Shown: in pieces, positions 21,089 to 27,348 of the stretch
Layout: each line of letters starts with the position of its first letter
Numbering within the stretch: the first letter of the stretch is position 1
Source of the DNA: Alistipes sp.
Lineage (GTDB): Bacteria > Bacteroidota > Bacteroidia > Bacteroidales > Rikenellaceae
NCBI GenBank assembly: GCA_017408825.1
Contig: JAFQTX010000019.1
Coordinates: 1 to 32,659 of the forward strand
Length of the DNA: 32,659 nucleotides
Reading direction: 5' to 3'
Made by a program: the position numbers and the translations under genes
The notes under the pieces: model-generated
Databases searched by the model: none
The model's input: the letters and a program-made list of their open reading frames with translations, nothing else
Told to the model about the DNA's origin: nothing

Positions 21089-22078
21089 ATGCTGGATAAC
21101 GATAACAACATAGTGATATATCAGACCCCCGATGGCGAGACATGTGTAGATGTCCGCCTCGAGGGGGATACTGTGTGGTTATCACAAGCCGAGATAGCAC
21201 GTCTTTATAATACTGACCGAACATCAATTAGTCGCCATATACGCAACATTTACAATAGCGAGGAGTTGGATGAAGCTGCAACCTGTGCAAAAATTGCACA
21301 AGTTCGATTTGAGGGCAAACGACGCATTGAGCGTACGATATATGCATATAATCTTGATATGATTATATCGATTGGCTATAGAGTAAACTCGAAGCATGCT
21401 ACTCAGTTCCGAATATGGGCAAATCGCATACTCAAGGAGTATTTTATAAAGGGTTACGTAGTAAATCACAACGCTCAAATCGAACAGCTTGACGAACTCA
21501 AGCGCACGATAAACATAATGAGCAACGTGATTGCAGCACAGCAAGTTTCTAAGGATGAGGCAATAGGTTTGCTTAATGTTATTAGCGACTACACGTATGC
21601 TCTTGAAACGCTTGATAAGTATGATTATCAACAACTTGAGATATCACACACCACTATATCTAATAGGTTTATAGCGACCTATGAAAATGCCATTGAGGCT
21701 CTTGAAATACTAAAAAACAGGTTTGGTGGTAGTGCATTGTTTGCCCATGAAAAAGATGACTCATTCAAGAGCACAATGGGCGTGATATATCAAACTTTTG
21801 ATGGCCAAGAGCTTTACCCAAGCATCGAGGAAAAGGCTGCTAATTTATTATACCTAACAGTTAAGAATCATTCGTTTAGCGATGGCAACAAACGTATTGC
21901 AGCATTTCTTTTCTTGTGGTTCTTGGAGAATAATGGCATTCTATACCGCCAAAATCGCACACCTCTTTTAGATAATAACACGCTTGTTGCTCTTACATTG
22001 ATGATTGCAGAAAGTGATGTTAATGAGAAAGATATAATGACAAAGGTTGTTATCAACCTTATTAACCATAACAACTAA
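21089..22078 (+). CDS. RhuM-type N-terminal domain fused to Fic/Doc domain
   Basis: A 329-aa protein. Residues about 8-120 match the virulence-associated RhuM type: VDVRLEGDTVWLSQAEIARLY with an HTH-like stretch (LSQAEIARLYNTDRTSISRH) and YRVNSKHATQFRIWA. A linker leads to a Fic/Doc domain with motif HSFSDGNKR (His261, Asp265, Lys268, Arg269). Lys in place of the second Gly of the AMPylating HxFxxGNGR motif resembles Doc, which phosphorylates EF-Tu, so AMP transfer should not be assumed. The gene is visibly more AT-rich than lysS and tpiA on either side (many ATA and TTA codons), suggesting later acquisition. It is inserted in frame-tight spacing (12 and 18 bp) between two housekeeping genes. 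No separate antitoxin gene is visible; the N-terminal domain may be regulatory. Confidence 0.88.
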   Translation: MLDNDNNIVIYQTPDGETCVDVRLEGDTVWLSQAEIARLYNTDRTSISRHIRNIYNSEELDEAATCAKIAQVRFEGKRRIERTIYAYNLDMIISIGYRVNSKHATQFRIWANRILKEYFIKGYVVNHNAQIEQLDELKRTINIMSNVIAAQQVSKDEAIGLLNVISDYTYALETLDKYDYQQLEISHTTISNRFIATYENAIEALEILKNRFGGSALFAHEKDDSFKSTMGVIYQTFDGQELYPSIEEKAANLLYLTVKNHSFSDGNKRIAAFLFLWFLENNGILYRQNRTPLLDNNTLVALTLMIAESDVNEKDIMTKVVINLINHNN

Positions 22079-22873: not shown

Positions 22874-22902
22874 ATGAGAGCTGCCCTCGGGACAGCTCTC
22901 AT
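22874..22902. terminator. Bidirectional terminator between tpiA and the radical SAM operon
   Basis: ATGAGAGCTG (22874-22883) and CAGCTCTCAT (22893-22902) form a perfect 10-bp stem, and an inner CCC/GGG can extend it. The minus-strand side is followed by six T soon after the stem (CTGTTTTTT), and the plus side by ATTATATTAT. It ends both convergent transcripts. Confidence 0.82.
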
Positions 22903-22906
22903 TATA

Positions 22907-23983
22907 TTATCGCAAGATGCGCTGGTAGTGGCATAGCAGCAAGTTCTCATCATCATCGTATAGATGCATACCGTTGCCCTCGCAGTATTGCCACATCTTA
23001 CAGTCGGCACACTTACCCCTCTTTGCCCACGCTCGGTTGCGGAACTTCTGGAAGCGATTTTGCCATACATCCCAGAAGTTATCCTTGTAGATATTTCCCT
23101 GGGTGAAGTTGGCACGCACCGACGTACATCCCGAAATATCGCCATTAACACGTATCGAGGCAGTACCCACACCGGCGTAGCACTCAAACGGATTGGTGCG
23201 TACACGCATCTCATAGCCCGCCAGGAAACCCTCACAACCATACGAGGCCATAATACGACCCTCCTTACGGCACTGCTCGATAAACTGCATCACATAGGTA
23301 AACTCCTCATCGTTAAGCTGCAGCGTGGGATCAGTCGCGGCACGTCCCACGGGGAAGATGGTAAACAATCGCCAGCGACGCACGCCCAGCGAGTACAAAA
23401 ACTCCTTGAACTCCTCCAGACGAGGAAGTAGCGCTGGGGTCACGCACGTAACCACATCCGAGGCGAGCTCCTTATCGGCAGATATCATATTTACAGCCTC
23501 TACGGCACGCTTGAAGCTCTCGGGGTTTTGGCGTATGTGGAGGTGTTGCTCCTCAAAGCCATCCAGCGACACAGTTATAGAGTGCAGACCAGCACGCACC
23601 AACGAGTCAAAACGTTGGCGTGTAAGGCCCATACCATTGGTCACCATACCCCAAGGATAGCCACGGCGATAGAGGTTGATGCCTATCTCCTCAAGATCCT
23701 TACGCACAAGCACCTCACCTCCCGAGAGGATCACGAGCACCTTATTGGGGTTTACGTGTGGTGTGATATCATTGTCGAGGACTCGGAAGAAATCCTTTGC
23801 TGGCATATCTTGCAGCGTTGTATCCACCTTACAGTCGCTACCACAGTGGCGACATTGCAGGTTACAGCGTAGTGTACACTCCCAAAATAGCGTGTTCAGC
23901 ACGTGCTCATCACGACGTATCTGACGCAGTTTCTTGAAGAGTTTAAGTGCTATCCATTGGCGCACTCCAAGGCGTTTTCCCAT
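22907..23983 (-). CDS. Radical SAM/SPASM enzyme of a lipoprotein-associated operon (1)
   Basis: A 358-aa enzyme. The radical SAM [4Fe-4S] site is CNLQCRHC (Cys40, Cys44, Cys47), and SGGE occurs at 87-90. The C-terminal SPASM region holds Cys268, Cys286, Cys325, Cys328, Cys334 and Cys351, enough for auxiliary Fe-S clusters (FECYAG; DISGCTSVRANFTQGNI; CADCKMWQYCEGN). SPASM enzymes usually modify ribosomally made peptides or proteins. Here it is the last gene of a seven-gene minus operon whose first five genes encode small secreted proteins with a shared motif, so these are its likely substrates. It resembles the radical SAM member of the rSAM/lipoprotein system (TIGR04133 as I recall). The chemistry is not known. 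It starts 6 bp after the preceding radical SAM gene. Confidence 0.92.
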   Translation of the reverse strand: MGKRLGVRQWIALKLFKKLRQIRRDEHVLNTLFWECTLRCNLQCRHCGSDCKVDTTLQDMPAKDFFRVLDNDITPHVNPNKVLVILSGGEVLVRKDLEEIGINLYRRGYPWGMVTNGMGLTRQRFDSLVRAGLHSITVSLDGFEEQHLHIRQNPESFKRAVEAVNMISADKELASDVVTCVTPALLPRLEEFKEFLYSLGVRRWRLFTIFPVGRAATDPTLQLNDEEFTYVMQFIEQCRKEGRIMASYGCEGFLAGYEMRVRTNPFECYAGVGTASIRVNGDISGCTSVRANFTQGNIYKDNFWDVWQNRFQKFRNRAWAKRGKCADCKMWQYCEGNGMHLYDDDENLLLCHYQRILR

Positions 23984-23989
23984 AGTTGG

Positions 23990-25030
23990 TTATTTACAGT
24001 TTTCAATATTTAGTATCGGATCGACACGATCAAACGTGCCATAGAGCTGTTCGGAGGCGGCACGACAGCCTCCACGACACCTCTCCCAAAGTTTGCATAG
24101 CGTACACTCACGTGGTAGAGAGCGAAAGTAACCATCCGACTGCGAGCGGCTAAGGATGCTGTCAAGGCTCTCGGTGTGGATATTACCCAACACTCGTGGC
24201 GAGTGGTTACAGAAGCGCACATCGCCTCGATAGTTGATGGTAATTGGTCGAGAGCGTAGGTCGGTGGTGCAGTGCGTAAAGGTGATGTTTCGATAGTGCT
24301 TGGGATCGAGCACACATATCGGCGTACATACTCCGCTATGCGCCCGTAGGCCAAGCTCTTGCAACTTGCTATCCACTCGACCAAAGGCCTCACGCAGCTG
24401 GCTATGCGAGAGGTTTAACTGCGCAGCATTAGCTATGCCAAGTCCTCCAATATTAAAGCGATTGACGAGGATGTTTGTAGCCCCTAACTCGGCATATAGC
24501 TCTAACGTAGGCTCTATCGTCGCAAGGTTTTGGAGCGTAAGTATCAGCACAGGAGCCAACCACCCAGCACGCTTCGAGGTTATCTTACGTGCCGCAGCCA
24601 CAGCACGCTCCCACGAGCCTGGTAGCGATGTTAGCGAGTCGTGGATGGAGCTTTCAGCAGAGAGTATCGGCACCTGGATAATCCCTATGCCTATATCATC
24701 AAATATAGCAATATCATCATCCGAGAGCAGCGTGGCATTGGTCAGCAGGTTTACGTTCGAGCCTGCGAAACGAGCCCTAAGCGCCAAGTCGTGAACCTTA
24801 GGTAGTAGCATCGGCTCGCCACCTGAGAGCGAGAGGCTGGCTATGGTCGCCTCGCTCAGCAGCCGCTTTAGGGTGCGCTCAGCAAGGCGATGGTCGGGAG
24901 GCTCAGGGGCGCAGTAGCCAGGAGCGCCCTTAAAGTGGTTGTAGCAGAACTTACACGCCTGGTTACAGGCATCCGTAAGTTCGAATACCACCACGCCAAG
25001 CTCCAACCTTTTTCGTCGTGCGAAGAGCAT
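23990..25030 (-). CDS. Radical SAM/SPASM enzyme of a lipoprotein-associated operon (2)
   Basis: A 346-aa enzyme with radical SAM motif CNQACKFC (Cys22, Cys26, Cys29), followed by Tyr30, and SGGEP at 69-73. The C-terminal SPASM-like region has Cys235, Cys239, Cys254, Cys274, Cys309, Cys312, Cys318, Cys322 and Cys345. The pattern CTLCKLWERCRGGC is typical of an auxiliary-cluster twist domain. It is clearly different from the downstream enzyme, so the two may act one after the other or on different substrates. Its ATG lies 3 bp after the stop of the upstream protein gene (25034), which suggests translational coupling of substrate and enzyme. Confidence 0.92.
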   Translation of the reverse strand: MLFARRKRLELGVVVFELTDACNQACKFCYNHFKGAPGYCAPEPPDHRLAERTLKRLLSEATIASLSLSGGEPMLLPKVHDLALRARFAGSNVNLLTNATLLSDDDIAIFDDIGIGIIQVPILSAESSIHDSLTSLPGSWERAVAAARKITSKRAGWLAPVLILTLQNLATIEPTLELYAELGATNILVNRFNIGGLGIANAAQLNLSHSQLREAFGRVDSKLQELGLRAHSGVCTPICVLDPKHYRNITFTHCTTDLRSRPITINYRGDVRFCNHSPRVLGNIHTESLDSILSRSQSDGYFRSLPRECTLCKLWERCRGGCRAASEQLYGTFDRVDPILNIENCK

Positions 25031-25033
25031 AGA

Positions 25034-25573
25034 TTAGTCTACAATAGATACAAAGATACCTGCAAACGGCCAGAAGTTCTCGTCGCCATCCTCGTACTTA
25101 TCATACTCCACGCATAGCTCTGCACGGCCACGATAGTCACCCGCCTCGATAGTAAACTCAAGTTGATTGTCGCCCGTCTCTACCGCATATGTCTGACTGC
25201 AAAGCACTCTATCCTCGCTATCGTCATCGGTAATTAGCGACACCTTTACCTCGCTACCAAATCGACATTCGTAGTAAAGCACAACCTTATCGCCATTGCG
25301 CAACTCACTATTGGCCACATCCTTATTCCAACGATGGTCGTTCTCTGGAGGTGGTGCTGGGTCGTAACATGACACGCCATACTCGTCGCCAGCGCCAGAC
25401 CCACACGCCGAGAGCGAAATCATTGTCGTGAGTGTGAGCATAATACCGCCAAGACGGAACTTCGTACGCACAGCACGTGCGCTACGGCCCCCACTTAGCA
25501 TCACCCAAAGCGACACCACCGCAAAGGCTACACCAAGAAAGGCTAAACCCATTAATGCAAATGTCCGTTTCAT
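25034..25573 (-). CDS. Radical-SAM-associated protein with membrane segment and internal lipobox
   Basis: A 179-aa protein. An N-terminal hydrophobic segment (4-26) is followed by a basic stretch (RSARAVRTKFR, 30-40), then a second hydrophobic stretch (about 42-56) ending in ISLSAC, a lipobox at Cys57. Just after it comes DEYGVSCYDPAPPP (63-76), which matches the YGVP...Y region of the neighbouring lipoproteins, with Ser-Cys in place of Pro. The remaining 100 residues look like a beta-sandwich. The natural start might be the internal Met45 (LTLTTMISLSAC), which would give a normal lipoprotein; the RR...K run could also mark a signal start. It lies between the short lipoprotein and the two radical SAM genes. 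A modified substrate is my inference; no named family is certain. Confidence 0.82.
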   Translation of the reverse strand: MKRTFALMGLAFLGVAFAVVSLWVMLSGGRSARAVRTKFRLGGIMLTLTTMISLSACGSGAGDEYGVSCYDPAPPPENDHRWNKDVANSELRNGDKVVLYYECRFGSEVKVSLITDDDSEDRVLCSQTYAVETGDNQLEFTIEAGDYRGRAELCVEYDKYEDGDENFWPFAGIFVSIVD

Positions 25574-25615
25574 GATTGGTTATTAGTTGTTAGTAGTTAG
25601 TTGATAGAGGTGGGG

Positions 25616-25801
25616 TTAGCGATTTATCTCCATCGTATCATCCTCCGTAGCGACATTCTCATCATATGTGACACGCTCCGAATCTCGATACTCACTATAA
25701 GGGACACCATAGGCATCAAGATTTCCGCCACCTTCAAGCTCTTCGCAGCTCACAGCACCAAATCCCAATAGGGCTAATAGCGCAAAAATTAGTCGTTTCA
25801 T
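25616..25801 (-). CDS. Short 61-aa lipoprotein with YGVP motif (minimal radical SAM substrate candidate)
   Basis: Signal MKRLIFALLALLGFGAVSC places the lipidated Cys at 19. It continues EELEGGGNLDAYGVPYSEYR, then an acidic tail to residue 61. Compared with its neighbours it keeps the lipoprotein leader and the YGVP...Y motif but has no folded domain after it. It may be a complete short precursor or a truncated paralogue. It has a normal start and stop and clean 41-42-bp gaps, so it is not obviously a pseudogene. Confidence 0.78.
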   Translation of the reverse strand: MKRLIFALLALLGFGAVSCEELEGGGNLDAYGVPYSEYRDSERVTYDENVATEDDTMEINR

Positions 25802-25811
25802 ATACCTAACG

Positions 25812-25845
25812 AATTAGAAATTAGTAATAGTTGTTAGTTATTTTA
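25812..25845 (-). repeat. AT-rich leader motif, copy B
   Basis: On the plus strand it reads AATTAGAAATTAGTAATAG and then GTTATTTTA a few bases later. It matches copy A at 27274-27301 except for one base and a 6-base insert. It overlaps the stop codon (25843-25845) of one lipoprotein gene and precedes the next (ATG at 25801). Confidence 0.6.
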
Positions 25846-26187
25846 CTCTTTGCGGCTGAGCGTTATGTTGCCTATCTCGCCATCACTACCACTTAGGTCA
25901 ATCATATGGGACTCAAACTCGCCACCATTCTCCTCGCCATCGACATCCTCGAACTTCAAATATGGAGTATCGCCCATGGCATAGAAGCGACCATCCTCCC
26001 CGGAATAGGTCTTTATATCTCCCAATACTACCTTAATACCCTTAATGGCCTCGCCCTCAGGGTCTACCACACGCCCATTGGCCCTCCACGCTGGCTGGTA
26101 CTCAGCCTCAGGAACACCATAGCATGCCACACACGTGAGCGTCATACCAAACAGCGCAAATAGTCGTGTTAAAATCTTGCCTATCAT
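25843..26187 (-). CDS. Radical-SAM-associated lipoprotein with YGVP motif and regulatory-like domain
   Basis: A 114-aa protein. The hydrophobic leader ends in TCVACYGVPEAEY, so the probable lipid Cys22 is followed directly by Tyr-Gly-Val-Pro (23-26) and EAEY. The lipobox is imperfect (Cys at -3). The body, NGRVVDPEGEAIKGIKVVL, looks like a carboxypeptidase-regulatory-like beta-sandwich, with LKFEDVDGEENGGEFES in common with the next upstream paralogue. The putative modification motif lies next to the membrane anchor. It starts 4 bp after that paralogue's stop. Confidence 0.85.
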   Translation of the reverse strand: MIGKILTRLFALFGMTLTCVACYGVPEAEYQPAWRANGRVVDPEGEAIKGIKVVLGDIKTYSGEDGRFYAMGDTPYLKFEDVDGEENGGEFESHMIDLSGSDGEIGNITLSRKE

Positions 26188-26191
26188 AATA

Positions 26192-26611
26192 TTACTCCTC
26201 CTTTAACGTCATAGTCACATCGCCTAACTCGGCCTTAAAGGCACCATCGTACCAACTTCCGGAGCCATCTTCGGTCTTCTCAACCTTATCAGTAATATCG
26301 AGCGTCAAGGTCTCAAACTCGCCACCATTCGCCTCGCCATCGACATCCTCGAACCTAACCCTATTCTGAGAACCTGTGAAGACTGATTCATTAACATTGA
26401 TTTCACCATTCGGATCGGTATACTCCTCAATCCAGTCAACACGCACCTTAATGCCTTCGATAGGCTCGCCAGCCTCATCAACAACACGTGCCCTAAGGCT
26501 GAAGTTCACGTGAGGACAGCCATACTCTCCCGCAACATCCTCCCCAATCTCTTCACACGAAATAGCACCAAAGCCCAAGAGAGCCAGCAACAAATAAATT
26601 AGCTTTTTCAT
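26192..26611 (-). CDS. Radical-SAM-associated lipoprotein with YGCP motif and regulatory-like domain
   Basis: A 139-aa protein with leader MKKLIYLLLALLGFGAISC (Cys19) and then EEIGEDVAGEYGCPHVNF. Here the motif is Tyr-Gly-Cys-Pro, which adds a thiol at the position of Val. The domain RARVVDEAGEPIEGIKVRV and the stretch VRFEDVDGEANGGEFET show it is a paralogue of the 25843-26187 product. Both the leader and the motif are close to those of other Bacteroidales radical SAM-linked lipoproteins as I remember them (TIGR04134). It is the second gene of the operon. Confidence 0.87.
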   Translation of the reverse strand: MKKLIYLLLALLGFGAISCEEIGEDVAGEYGCPHVNFSLRARVVDEAGEPIEGIKVRVDWIEEYTDPNGEINVNESVFTGSQNRVRFEDVDGEANGGEFETLTLDITDKVEKTEDGSGSWYDGAFKAELGDVTMTLKEE

Positions 26612-26639
26612 AGTTCTATACCTTTATATACTATATGTA

Positions 26640-27260
26640 TCACTTTGGACACCCTGCCTCTGTTGCAAAACATATTCGGCAGTTGGTAAACTTACCCTGG
26701 CGCACCTCTATCTCATCGCCGTCCGTAGTACGCCCCCTAAACTCAAACTCGCCACTTAGGAGGTAGTCCTCGCCATACTCCTCACGACTCGTGAAGATGA
26801 TATAGCCATCAACGGCACGATAGCAGAGGGTGATGATGTCTGTTACGGTAGTGCCACTCGGAAGGGTTGTTGTTGCGCCTCGCTCCTGAAAATCGACACA
26901 AGCACGCCCCTTGCCAAGCAGCGTTAGGCTATACACCTTATCCAACTCGAAATCTGAGTGGAGGTTCTCGAGGTAGAAGTAGAGAGTTGCTTCCTTGCCC
27001 GAAGCGGACTCAAGACCACGACGCAGGTCAAACTTAAAACCACCATCGCTATTAATAACCATCTCGGGATGGTTACGATTAGTGAATACACCACCATCGC
27101 TCGTAAACTCCTCGCCCTCCCACTCATAGCGTGAGCCATAGAGCGTAAGCGATATTGGCGCATCGGTATCCAAGCCAATAATGTAGCCGAAGTCCTTAGC
27201 GCATGCCGAGAACACAACAACCGAGATTGCGACAAGAGAGATGCGAAGTAGTCGTTTCAT
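26640..27260 (-). CDS. First lipoprotein of the radical SAM operon, Cys-rich C-terminus
   Basis: The start at ATG 27260 gives MKRLLRISLVAISVVVFSAC with lipid Cys20; an upstream ATG at 27275 would add five residues before the leader. The 206-aa protein has a beta-rich body and no YGVP just after the Cys, although YGSRY occurs at about 41-45. It ends NCRICFATEAGCPK with Cys194, Cys197 and Cys204 within the last 13 residues, with further Cys at 121 and 146. A C-terminal Cys cluster would be a natural target for a thiol-directed radical SAM enzyme, but this is inference. It is the first gene after the operon promoter. No named family was recognised. Confidence 0.82.
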   Translation of the reverse strand: MKRLLRISLVAISVVVFSACAKDFGYIIGLDTDAPISLTLYGSRYEWEGEEFTSDGGVFTNRNHPEMVINSDGGFKFDLRRGLESASGKEATLYFYLENLHSDFELDKVYSLTLLGKGRACVDFQERGATTTLPSGTTVTDIITLCYRAVDGYIIFTSREEYGEDYLLSGEFEFRGRTTDGDEIEVRQGKFTNCRICFATEAGCPK

Positions 27261-27316: not shown

Positions 27317-27348
27317 CAAAATTACTTCATTATATTGTGCAAACCAAA
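27317..27348 (-). promoter_or_regulatory. Consensus promoter of the radical SAM/lipoprotein operon
   Basis: On the minus strand TTTG (27348-27345), a 20-bp spacer and TAATTTTG (27324-27317) match TTTG-N19/20-TAnnTTTG. The transcript would start near 27310, giving a leader of about 50 nt. No other strong promoter was seen down to the terminator at 22874-22902, so one mRNA may carry all seven genes. Confidence 0.75.

What the first reader, a model, noticed from the sequence alone, without database searches (positions are those of the whole stretch)
22907..27260. Seven-gene operon of secreted proteins plus two different radical SAM/SPASM enzymes
Seen: five tightly spaced small secreted-protein genes are followed on the same strand by two SPASM-type radical SAM genes, with one consensus promoter in front and a strong terminator at the end. 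Two of the gaps next to the enzymes are 3 and 6 bp. Known: SPASM enzymes mature peptides or proteins, and an rSAM/lipoprotein pairing has been predicted in Bacteroidales (TIGR04133/TIGR04134 from memory). Inference: the enzymes modify the lipoproteins before export, which would give surface lipoproteins with unusual crosslinks. Two distinct enzymes and five possible substrates in one operon make this version rich.
Basis: partly seen in the sequence, partly recalled or inferred. Interest (0 to 1): 0.85.

Follow-up and report, generated by a model that had tools for sequence, protein, structure and literature searches.

The report
Gut bacterial enzymes that rebuild lipoproteins
This gene cluster pairs two radical enzymes with small membrane-anchored proteins that carry short tagged motifs; one motif matches the site where a known enzyme family cuts a piece of tyrosine out of a protein backbone, so these bacteria may build reactive chemical groups into their surface proteins.

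Summary
Seven minus-strand genes (22907-27260) run from a Bacteroidota-type promoter to a strong terminator: five small secreted proteins, then two radical SAM/SPASM enzymes. "Five substrates, two enzymes, crosslinks" needs correcting. (1) TIGR04133 goes with lipoproteins bearing X-Tyr-Gly-x-Pro: 90 of 97 genes surveyed against 1 of 161 control genes. (2) X-Tyr-Gly is the site of the PlpX splicease, which excises tyramine (PMC10533398 passages). Three trees place TIGR04133 beside the TIGR04103/TIGR03913 group, apart from the other SPASM enzymes sampled, with shared residues. My leading reading is a lipoprotein splicease; the chemistry is inferred, not shown. (3) The second enzyme belongs to an unnamed pair: in 22 of 22 testable loci its upstream neighbour carries a Cys-Tyr motif. 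That pair also stands apart elsewhere in Bacteroidales. In this operon its partner carries Tyr-Gly and Cys-Tyr. The protein at 26640-27260 carries no conserved motif.

The parts
27317..27348 (-). Bacteroidota-type promoter, TTTG-N20-TAATTTTG
   Evidence: pattern scan, 56 nt upstream of the ATG at 27260; consensus recalled
26640..27260 (-). P0007, 206 aa lipoprotein; no conserved Tyr-Gly site, probably not a substrate
   Evidence: homologues in L037, L039, L042 have SG or NG where the window has YG
26192..26611 (-). P0006, TIGR04134 lipoprotein, motif GEYGCP (Y30)
   Evidence: 95.3 bits, cut-off 39.8; alignment A3
25843..26187 (-). P0005, lipoprotein, motif ACYGVP directly after the lipobox Cys
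   Evidence: TIGR04134 33.3 bits, below cut-off; 9 orthologues read CYG[TV] followed by P in 6, A in 2, E in 1
25616..25801 (-). P0004, 61 aa mini-lipoprotein, motif DAYGVP
   Evidence: TIGR04134 26.6 bits, below cut-off
25034..25573 (-). P0003, 179 aa, two-segment hydrophobic leader then DEYGVSCYDPAPPP: carries Tyr-Gly and the Cys-Tyr motif
   Evidence: no Pfam match at E <= 1, only a below-cut-off NCBIfam match (15.4 of 37 bits); family signature
23990..25030 (-). P0002, radical SAM/SPASM enzyme of an unnamed family, partner of the P0003 type
   Evidence: best NCBIfam match GeoRSP 88.7 bits, cut-off 400; neighbourhoods
22907..23983 (-). P0001, TIGR04133 radical SAM/SPASM enzyme, proposed lipoprotein splicease
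   Evidence: 578.4 bits, cut-off 425; trees; model pLDDT 94
22874..22902 (-). intrinsic terminator
   Evidence: 13-pair stem and T run

Best explanation
The operon holds two enzyme-substrate modules. Module 1: the TIGR04133 enzyme (P0001) acts in the cytoplasm on the X-Tyr-Gly-x-Pro site that lies between the lipobox cysteine and the rest of the lipoproteins P0004, P0005 and P0006, and possibly on the YGVS site of P0003. [quoted passage not shown] The proteins are then exported and lipidated, so an electrophilic ketoamide sits close to the membrane anchor and could act as a covalent protease trap or crosslinking handle. Module 2: P0002 modifies the Cys-Tyr site of P0003 (VSCYDP), chemistry unknown. 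Shown by computation: operon, families, coupling, motifs, kinship. Inferred: that modification happens, tyramine excision, biological role.
For: Coupling: a small codirectional YGxP neighbour for 90 of 97 TIGR04133 genes (81; 89 when joined; L041 added), against 1 of 161 other genes in the same loci and 3 of 91 other signal-bearing proteins. Three loci that my gene caller had dropped also have it (L106, L112, L119). Without motif filtering, 89 of 101 homologues of P0004/5/6 have YGxP, 7 have YG only (in L039 a chance YG in a motif-less paralogue), 5 neither. YG outlasts P: CYGTA and CYGTD in L148 and L153, CYGVVYTEF in L269, EYGVR upstream of the enzyme in L270, outside the order. XYG is the published PlpX site, and relatives of a TIGR04103 enzyme in cyanobacteria have it in their precursors: 162 YG sites in 95 cores, 62 of 80 loci. 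TIGR04133 groups with TIGR04103/TIGR03913 at 100/99, 98/92 and 98/89 support, apart from MftC, TIGR04053, TIGR04347 and P0002-type rows in all three trees, PqqE in the first two, NirJ and an AhbD-like row in the last two. Residues G48, S49, W204, G252, G255, Y257, E258, R262 are shared and occur in at most 2 of 8 other SPASM rows and at most 2 of 28 P0002-type rows (NirJ and AhbD-like were not in that alignment). Another member of the joint clade, from Agathobacter, has a small unannotated upstream ORF ending GPVMYGTGVRM. Module 2: 22 of 22 loci with intact upstream sequence have Cys-Tyr in the adjacent gene; control 6 of 91.
Against: TIGR04133 falls far below the TIGR04103 cut-off (96.3 of 725 bits), I saw no PlpY-like partner, and there is no nif11 leader match. 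It lacks the last Cys of CX2CX5CX3C and has invariant C51 and C250 that TIGR04103 lacks, so the auxiliary cluster may be bound differently. HMM cross-scores alone do not single out TIGR04103: AhbD and NirJ2 score as high or higher. Flanking preferences differ: TIGR04103-type sites are mostly [LM]YG[VAI][VI], with Pro in 23 of 162. L162, L163 and L164 of the joint clade, and L161, which falls among TIGR04133 on a long branch, have no convincing XYG neighbour; nor has the TIGR04133 gene of L145. In L269 only one of five TIGR04134-like genes has YGxP, two more have YG, two have neither. Comparators in the trees are few and several branches long. No mass data exist here.
Confidence: 0.55

Rival explanations
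1. TIGR04133 acts on the same tyrosine but with other chemistry: a Tyr-centred crosslink (cyclophane or ether over Tyr-Gly-x, or Tyr to X), or backbone or side-chain oxidation, with net loss of 2 Da or a similar small change.
For: Tyr, Gly and Pro are conserved together; other SPASM enzymes crosslink aromatic residues (recalled). The changed cysteine set leaves room for a different reaction.
Against: X and x vary widely: X is Glu, Cys, Met, Lys, Ala and others; x includes Gly and Pro (2 each of 137), poor crosslink partners. The enzyme groups with the XYG side in the trees. Cyclophane maturases were not among the rows, so this is not excluded.
Confidence: 0.3
2. The enzymes make cysteine-based thioether crosslinks in the lipoproteins, the usual sactipeptide or ranthipeptide chemistry.
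For: x is Cys in 11 of 137 sites and X is Cys in 25; P0003 has Cys-Tyr.
Against: The mature parts of P0004 and P0005 have no cysteine beyond the lipidated one, and Tyr-Gly, not Cys, is what is conserved. It remains open for the P0002/P0003 module.
Confidence: 0.06
3. The pairing is not enzyme and substrate: the lipoproteins are structural or nutrient-binding and the radical SAM proteins act on something else.
For: No experiment ties them together; seven TIGR04134-like genes with YGxP have no TIGR04133 gene in the stretch fetched (L262-L268), two of them in genomes (G009, G012) where no TIGR04133 was found (82 and 85% complete).
Against: Neighbours that differ strongly elsewhere share YGxP in 90 of 97 cases, some with the motif repeated, such as L097 and L102 and L112 and L119.
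Confidence: 0.09

Closest known systems
TIGR04133/TIGR04134 radical SAM-lipoprotein system (NCBIfam, hypothetical equivalogs)
   Same: P0001 and P0006 pass the curated cut-offs; adjacent codirectional genes
   Different: In other families mostly one enzyme with one to three such lipoproteins. Here three YGxP proteins plus a second, unnamed enzyme and its partner share the operon; the second enzyme stands beside TIGR04133 in 9 loci, all in one genus
PlpXY spliceases (by my inference TIGR04103, nif11-class rSAM maturase 3)
   Same: X-Tyr-Gly substrate core, SPASM enzyme, sister position in three trees, shared HCGS and G-[FYW]-x-G-x-Y-E-x3-R residues
   Different: Secreted lipoprotein substrates with a signal peptide instead of nif11- or NHLP-type precursors; no PlpY seen; different cysteine set; Pro after YGx
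GDL-motif system (TIGR03913 with DUF1843 peptides)
   Same: Same tree clade; DUF1843 peptides carry a Tyr near the N-terminus followed by Gly, Ala or once Met
   Different: Short peptides without a signal peptide; TIGR03913 cut-off not met by P0001 (93.8 of 591.75 bits). I did not verify that these are spliceases
GeoRSP and related SPASM enzymes (for P0002)
   Same: Domain layout; best NCBIfam match (88.7 bits, cut-off 400)
   Different: Far below cut-off; the partner is a membrane-leader Cys-Tyr protein, sometimes fused to TonB_C

Membership tests
TIGR04133 | score over curated cut-off (425 bits) | tested here: met
   578.4 bits
TIGR04134 | score over curated cut-off (39.8 bits) | tested here: met
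   P0006 95.3 bits; but P0005 33.3 and P0004 26.6 fall short, P0003 and P0007 have no match
PlpX-type splicease | X-Tyr-Gly site in the partner protein | tested here: met
   90 of 97 genes have a YGxP neighbour; 3 more keep YG
PlpX-type splicease | membership of TIGR04103 | tested here: not met
   96.3 bits, cut-off 725
PlpX-type splicease | PlpY-like recognition partner encoded alongside | tested here: not met
   by inspection only: no conserved small partner besides the lipoproteins in the neighbourhood tables; no PlpY model was run
PlpX-type splicease | nif11 or NHLP leader on the substrate | tested here: not met
   no leader family among matches of P0003-P0007; they start with hydrophobic signal regions
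[quoted passage not shown]
   needs mass spectrometry
PlpX-type splicease | common clade with TIGR04103, apart from other SPASM enzymes | tested here: met
   100/99, 98/92, 98/89; few comparators, AhbD represented only by a below-cut-off relative, NirJ, PqqE and MftC by one row each
GeoRSP rSAM (for P0002) | score over curated cut-off (400 bits) | tested here: not met
   88.7 bits

The most novel reading that the evidence does not exclude
Bacteroidales carry out backbone splicing on their own membrane lipoproteins: TIGR04133 is a lipoprotein splicease that installs ketoamide warheads next to the lipid anchor, and in this operon a second, undescribed radical SAM enzyme modifies a neighbouring Cys-Tyr site, so that one protein (P0003, DEYGVSCYDPAPPP) may receive two different radical modifications within about six residues.
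Probability: 0.4. Interest if true: 0.9.

Novelty: new variant of a known kind. Interest (0 to 1): 0.74.

Why it matters
TIGR04133 passed its cut-off in 87 of 393 genomes sampled from the order and in 47 of 61 of the window's genus, yet no paper in the held library names it. If it is a splicease, ketoamide-bearing proteins, so far described as peptide natural products and engineered tags in the passages I saw, would be ordinary membrane-anchored proteins of these bacteria, with a natural chemical handle for proteomics and a possible protease-trapping role. One co-expression and one intact-mass measurement would decide it. The P0002/P0003 pair is a separate new lead.

Tried and rejected
Sigma-70 promoter scan: close to chance; replaced by the Bacteroidota pattern. 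Direct search for PlpA2-type precursors by a DNA pattern: 0 matches in genome contigs; TIGR04103 was reached instead through a plasmid hit and a protein scan (best 80 of 198 kept). TIGR04103 in the phylum: 2 of 198 genomes at E <= 1e-60, none over cut-off. P0007 as a substrate: rejected, its Tyr-Gly is not conserved. One uniform chemistry for both enzymes: rejected, the substrate motifs differ. HMM scores as proof of kinship with TIGR04103: rejected, AhbD and NirJ2 score alike, hence the trees. Y/G/P invariance in alignment A3 is by construction, because I picked rows with YGxP; the unfiltered count is. In one search the second motif count returned 0 in every group: my pattern was faulty and it is not used. 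His340 looked shared but lies beside a gap (my reading of the sequences) and is not counted. Rows: of 101 sources given to (20 genus loci, some chosen because P0002 lies there; 80 order loci; the window), L106, L112, L119, L161 and L162 gave no TIGR04133 row; 97 genes remain because L143 has two; five of the 97 (L156-L160) scored below the TIGR04133 cut-off. Checked afterwards, L106, L112 and L119 do hold the enzyme and a YGxP neighbour, L161 and L162 score 148 and 135 bits against P0001 and have none. Solved structures: only distant SPASM relatives.
Full report
What is there. On the minus strand, 27260 down to 22907, seven genes follow each other with gaps of 28, 4, 41, 42, 3 and 6 bp. A Bacteroidota-type promoter precedes them (consensus recalled) and a 13-pair terminator ends them. 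The operon sits between tpiA and ispG. The last gene is a TIGR04133 enzyme at 578.4 bits; the gene before it (P0002) has no NCBIfam family over cut-off among the 25 best shown. P0006 is TIGR04134 over cut-off, P0005 and P0004 below it, P0003 and P0007 unassigned.

Distribution. The same genome has a second TIGR04133 gene on another contig, beside a single lipoprotein with LMYGVPFPDGE. Over cut-off: 47 of 61 genomes of the genus, 87 of 393 of the order. In a phylum-wide sample at E <= 1e-100 only 2 of 296 had it, one being the window's own genome. Named examples are Parabacteroides distasonis and, outside the phylum, a Treponema saccharophilum plasmid with the lipoprotein motif SCYGMP.

Coupling and motif. 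I surveyed 97 TIGR04133 genes from 96 of 101 sources given (a chosen set; dropped rows are in Tried and rejected). Of these, 81 had a codirectional neighbour under 300 aa with YGxP. A second method that reads all frames found 77 of 96 within 1.3 kb upstream (one gene at a contig edge), and the same method 1 of 161 for other genes of 250 aa or more in the same loci. The two together cover 89; L041, whose YGCP lipoproteins lie further upstream, makes 90 (overlap recounted). Of the other seven, L137, L148 and L153 have YG without Pro, L035 has AYAP, L121 and L124 seem to have a truncated upstream gene, L145 has nothing. Three loci missed by my gene caller (L106, L112, L119) also have YGxP, repeated in two of them; L270, from outside the order, has EYGVR upstream. 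Without any motif filter, 101 homologues of P0004/5/6 split into 89 YGxP, 7 YG only and 5 neither; the five, and the L039 one counted as YG only, look like one paralogue type with YYVL or YFVL. Thus Tyr-Gly is the core and Pro a common companion. The residue before Tyr varies: Glu 50, Cys 25, Met 17, Lys 15, Ala 13 of 137 sites. Where it is Cys, it is mostly what looks like the lipobox cysteine itself. Seven TIGR04134-like genes with no TIGR04133 gene in the fetched stretch all keep YGxP (L262-L268); five of their seven genomes have the enzyme elsewhere, G009 and G012 have none detected. In the small contig L269 only one of five such genes has YGxP, two have YG (MYGPL, CYGVV) and two neither.

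Why a splicease. PlpX excises tyramine from X-Tyr-Gly and rejoins the chain; natural sites are MYG and LYG, and tags used with it include LYGLPI (passages of PMC10533398; passage of PMC11002830). A Nostoc plasmid locus of the TIGR04103 family has a nif11 precursor ending LYGLPPELF, the enzyme and a 71 aa protein where PlpY would be expected. That TIGR04103 is PlpX's own family is my inference from its name, this gene order and these motifs. Eighty relatives of that enzyme (73-100% identity, best 80 of 198, cyanobacterial by their titles) gave 162 YG sites in 95 distinct cores from 62 of 80 loci, mostly [LM]YGV[VI], Pro at +3 in 23 of 162 (a looser filter found 69 of 80 loci, with some unrelated ORFs). 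In three maximum-likelihood trees (59, 45 and 38 rows) TIGR04133 joins the TIGR04103/TIGR03913 group with supports 100/99, 98/92 and 98/89, apart from MftC, TIGR04053, TIGR04347 and the P0002 type in all three, PqqE in the first two, NirJ and an AhbD-like protein in the last two. Residues G48, S49, W204, G252, G255, Y257, E258 and R262 (P0001 numbering) are shared by both sides and occur in at most 2 of the 8 other SPASM rows and 2 of the 28 P0002-type rows of that alignment. An Agathobacter enzyme of the joint clade has a short unannotated upstream ORF ending GPVMYGTGVRM.

Against it. L162, L163 and L164 in the joint clade, and L161, which falls among TIGR04133 on a long branch, show no convincing XYG neighbour. 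The family score is far below the TIGR04103 cut-off. I saw no PlpY. The cysteine set differs: the last Cys of CX2CX5CX3C is missing while C51 and C250 are invariant; the Agathobacter enzyme has cysteines at both of these places (sequence). Comparators were few and some branches long. I therefore put tyramine excision at a little over even odds and modification of the Tyr-Gly site by this enzyme considerably higher.

The second module. P0002-type enzymes occur in 10 of 61 genomes of the genus, nine of them beside TIGR04133, and at 35-41% identity over most of their length in 13 further genomes of the order, plus one fragment, out of 295 searched. In all 22 loci with intact upstream sequence the adjacent gene encodes a protein with a hydrophobic, basic leader followed by Cys-Tyr, usually CY[DE]; two more loci were truncated. 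Four more distant relatives (L295, L296, L298, L299; 24-28% identity) have no such motif and L297 has Cys-Tyr without the leader. In 91 control proteins 6 had Cys-Tyr. Several partners come in tandem, and the four tested from L281, L284 and L293 end in a TonB_C domain. The three partners tested without TonB_C and P0003 have no NCBIfam match over cut-off, and the four enzymes tested had none over cut-off among the 25 best shown. In the window and in L040, L041 and L042 the partner also has a Tyr-Gly (EYGVSCYD), four of nine in the genus-type operons, so the two enzymes may meet on one protein.

How it would work. The enzymes are expected to act before export (inference). The YGxP site lies in a spacer of variable length between the lipobox cysteine and a domain with weak, below-cut-off CarboxypepD_reg similarity. 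After splicing, a ketoamide would sit near the membrane anchor. Spliced peptides are described as protease inhibitors in two reviews (passages of PMC10373908, and PMC11002830), so a protease-trap role is my first guess, unproven; X would set the specificity.

Literature. No held paper names TIGR04133, and none holds TIGR04134 or four related names. Two broader searches listed three papers and one paper, none of which by its listing is about this pairing; I saw passages of one of them, PMC10352776. A search for splicease found 11 records, 7 listed; no listing mentions lipoproteins. Scott et al. 2022 may already include this group.

Noticed in passing
window 21089-22078 (+): A RhuM-Fic fusion protein (PF13310 and PF02661) lies just upstream of tpiA, a possible toxin-type gene.
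   Followed up: no
L037, L038, L039, L041, L044, L045: A TIGR04134-like paralogue in these operons has YYVL or YFVL where others have Tyr-Gly, a natural non-substrate control.
   Followed up: partly
L262-L268: TIGR04134-like lipoproteins with YGxP and no TIGR04133 gene in the fetched stretch; two of the seven genomes (G009, G012) have no TIGR04133 detected.
   Followed up: partly
L162 5525-5878 and L163 2733-3041: Enzymes of the joint clade stand beside similar small proteins sharing [IL]YL..WQKRM instead of XYG, perhaps another Tyr-directed substrate type.
   Followed up: no
L281, L284, L293: Cys-Tyr partners of P0002-type enzymes end in a TonB C-terminal domain.
   Followed up: no
L112, L119, L129, L130, L131, L140: Some TIGR04133 neighbours carry YG motifs repeatedly and near the C-terminus, for example REGAAVYGSPE repeats ending in LYGVPVP or LYGVPMP or TKYGIP with TKYGVLP.
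   Followed up: no
L261 153-1641: A P0003/P0002-type pair stands at a contig start in genome G028, on a different contig from that genome's over-cut-off TIGR04133 gene.
   Followed up: partly
L166 3794-6086: TIGR04133 and its lipoprotein on a Treponema saccharophilum plasmid beside an invertase-type recombinase, suggesting transfer between phyla.
   Followed up: no
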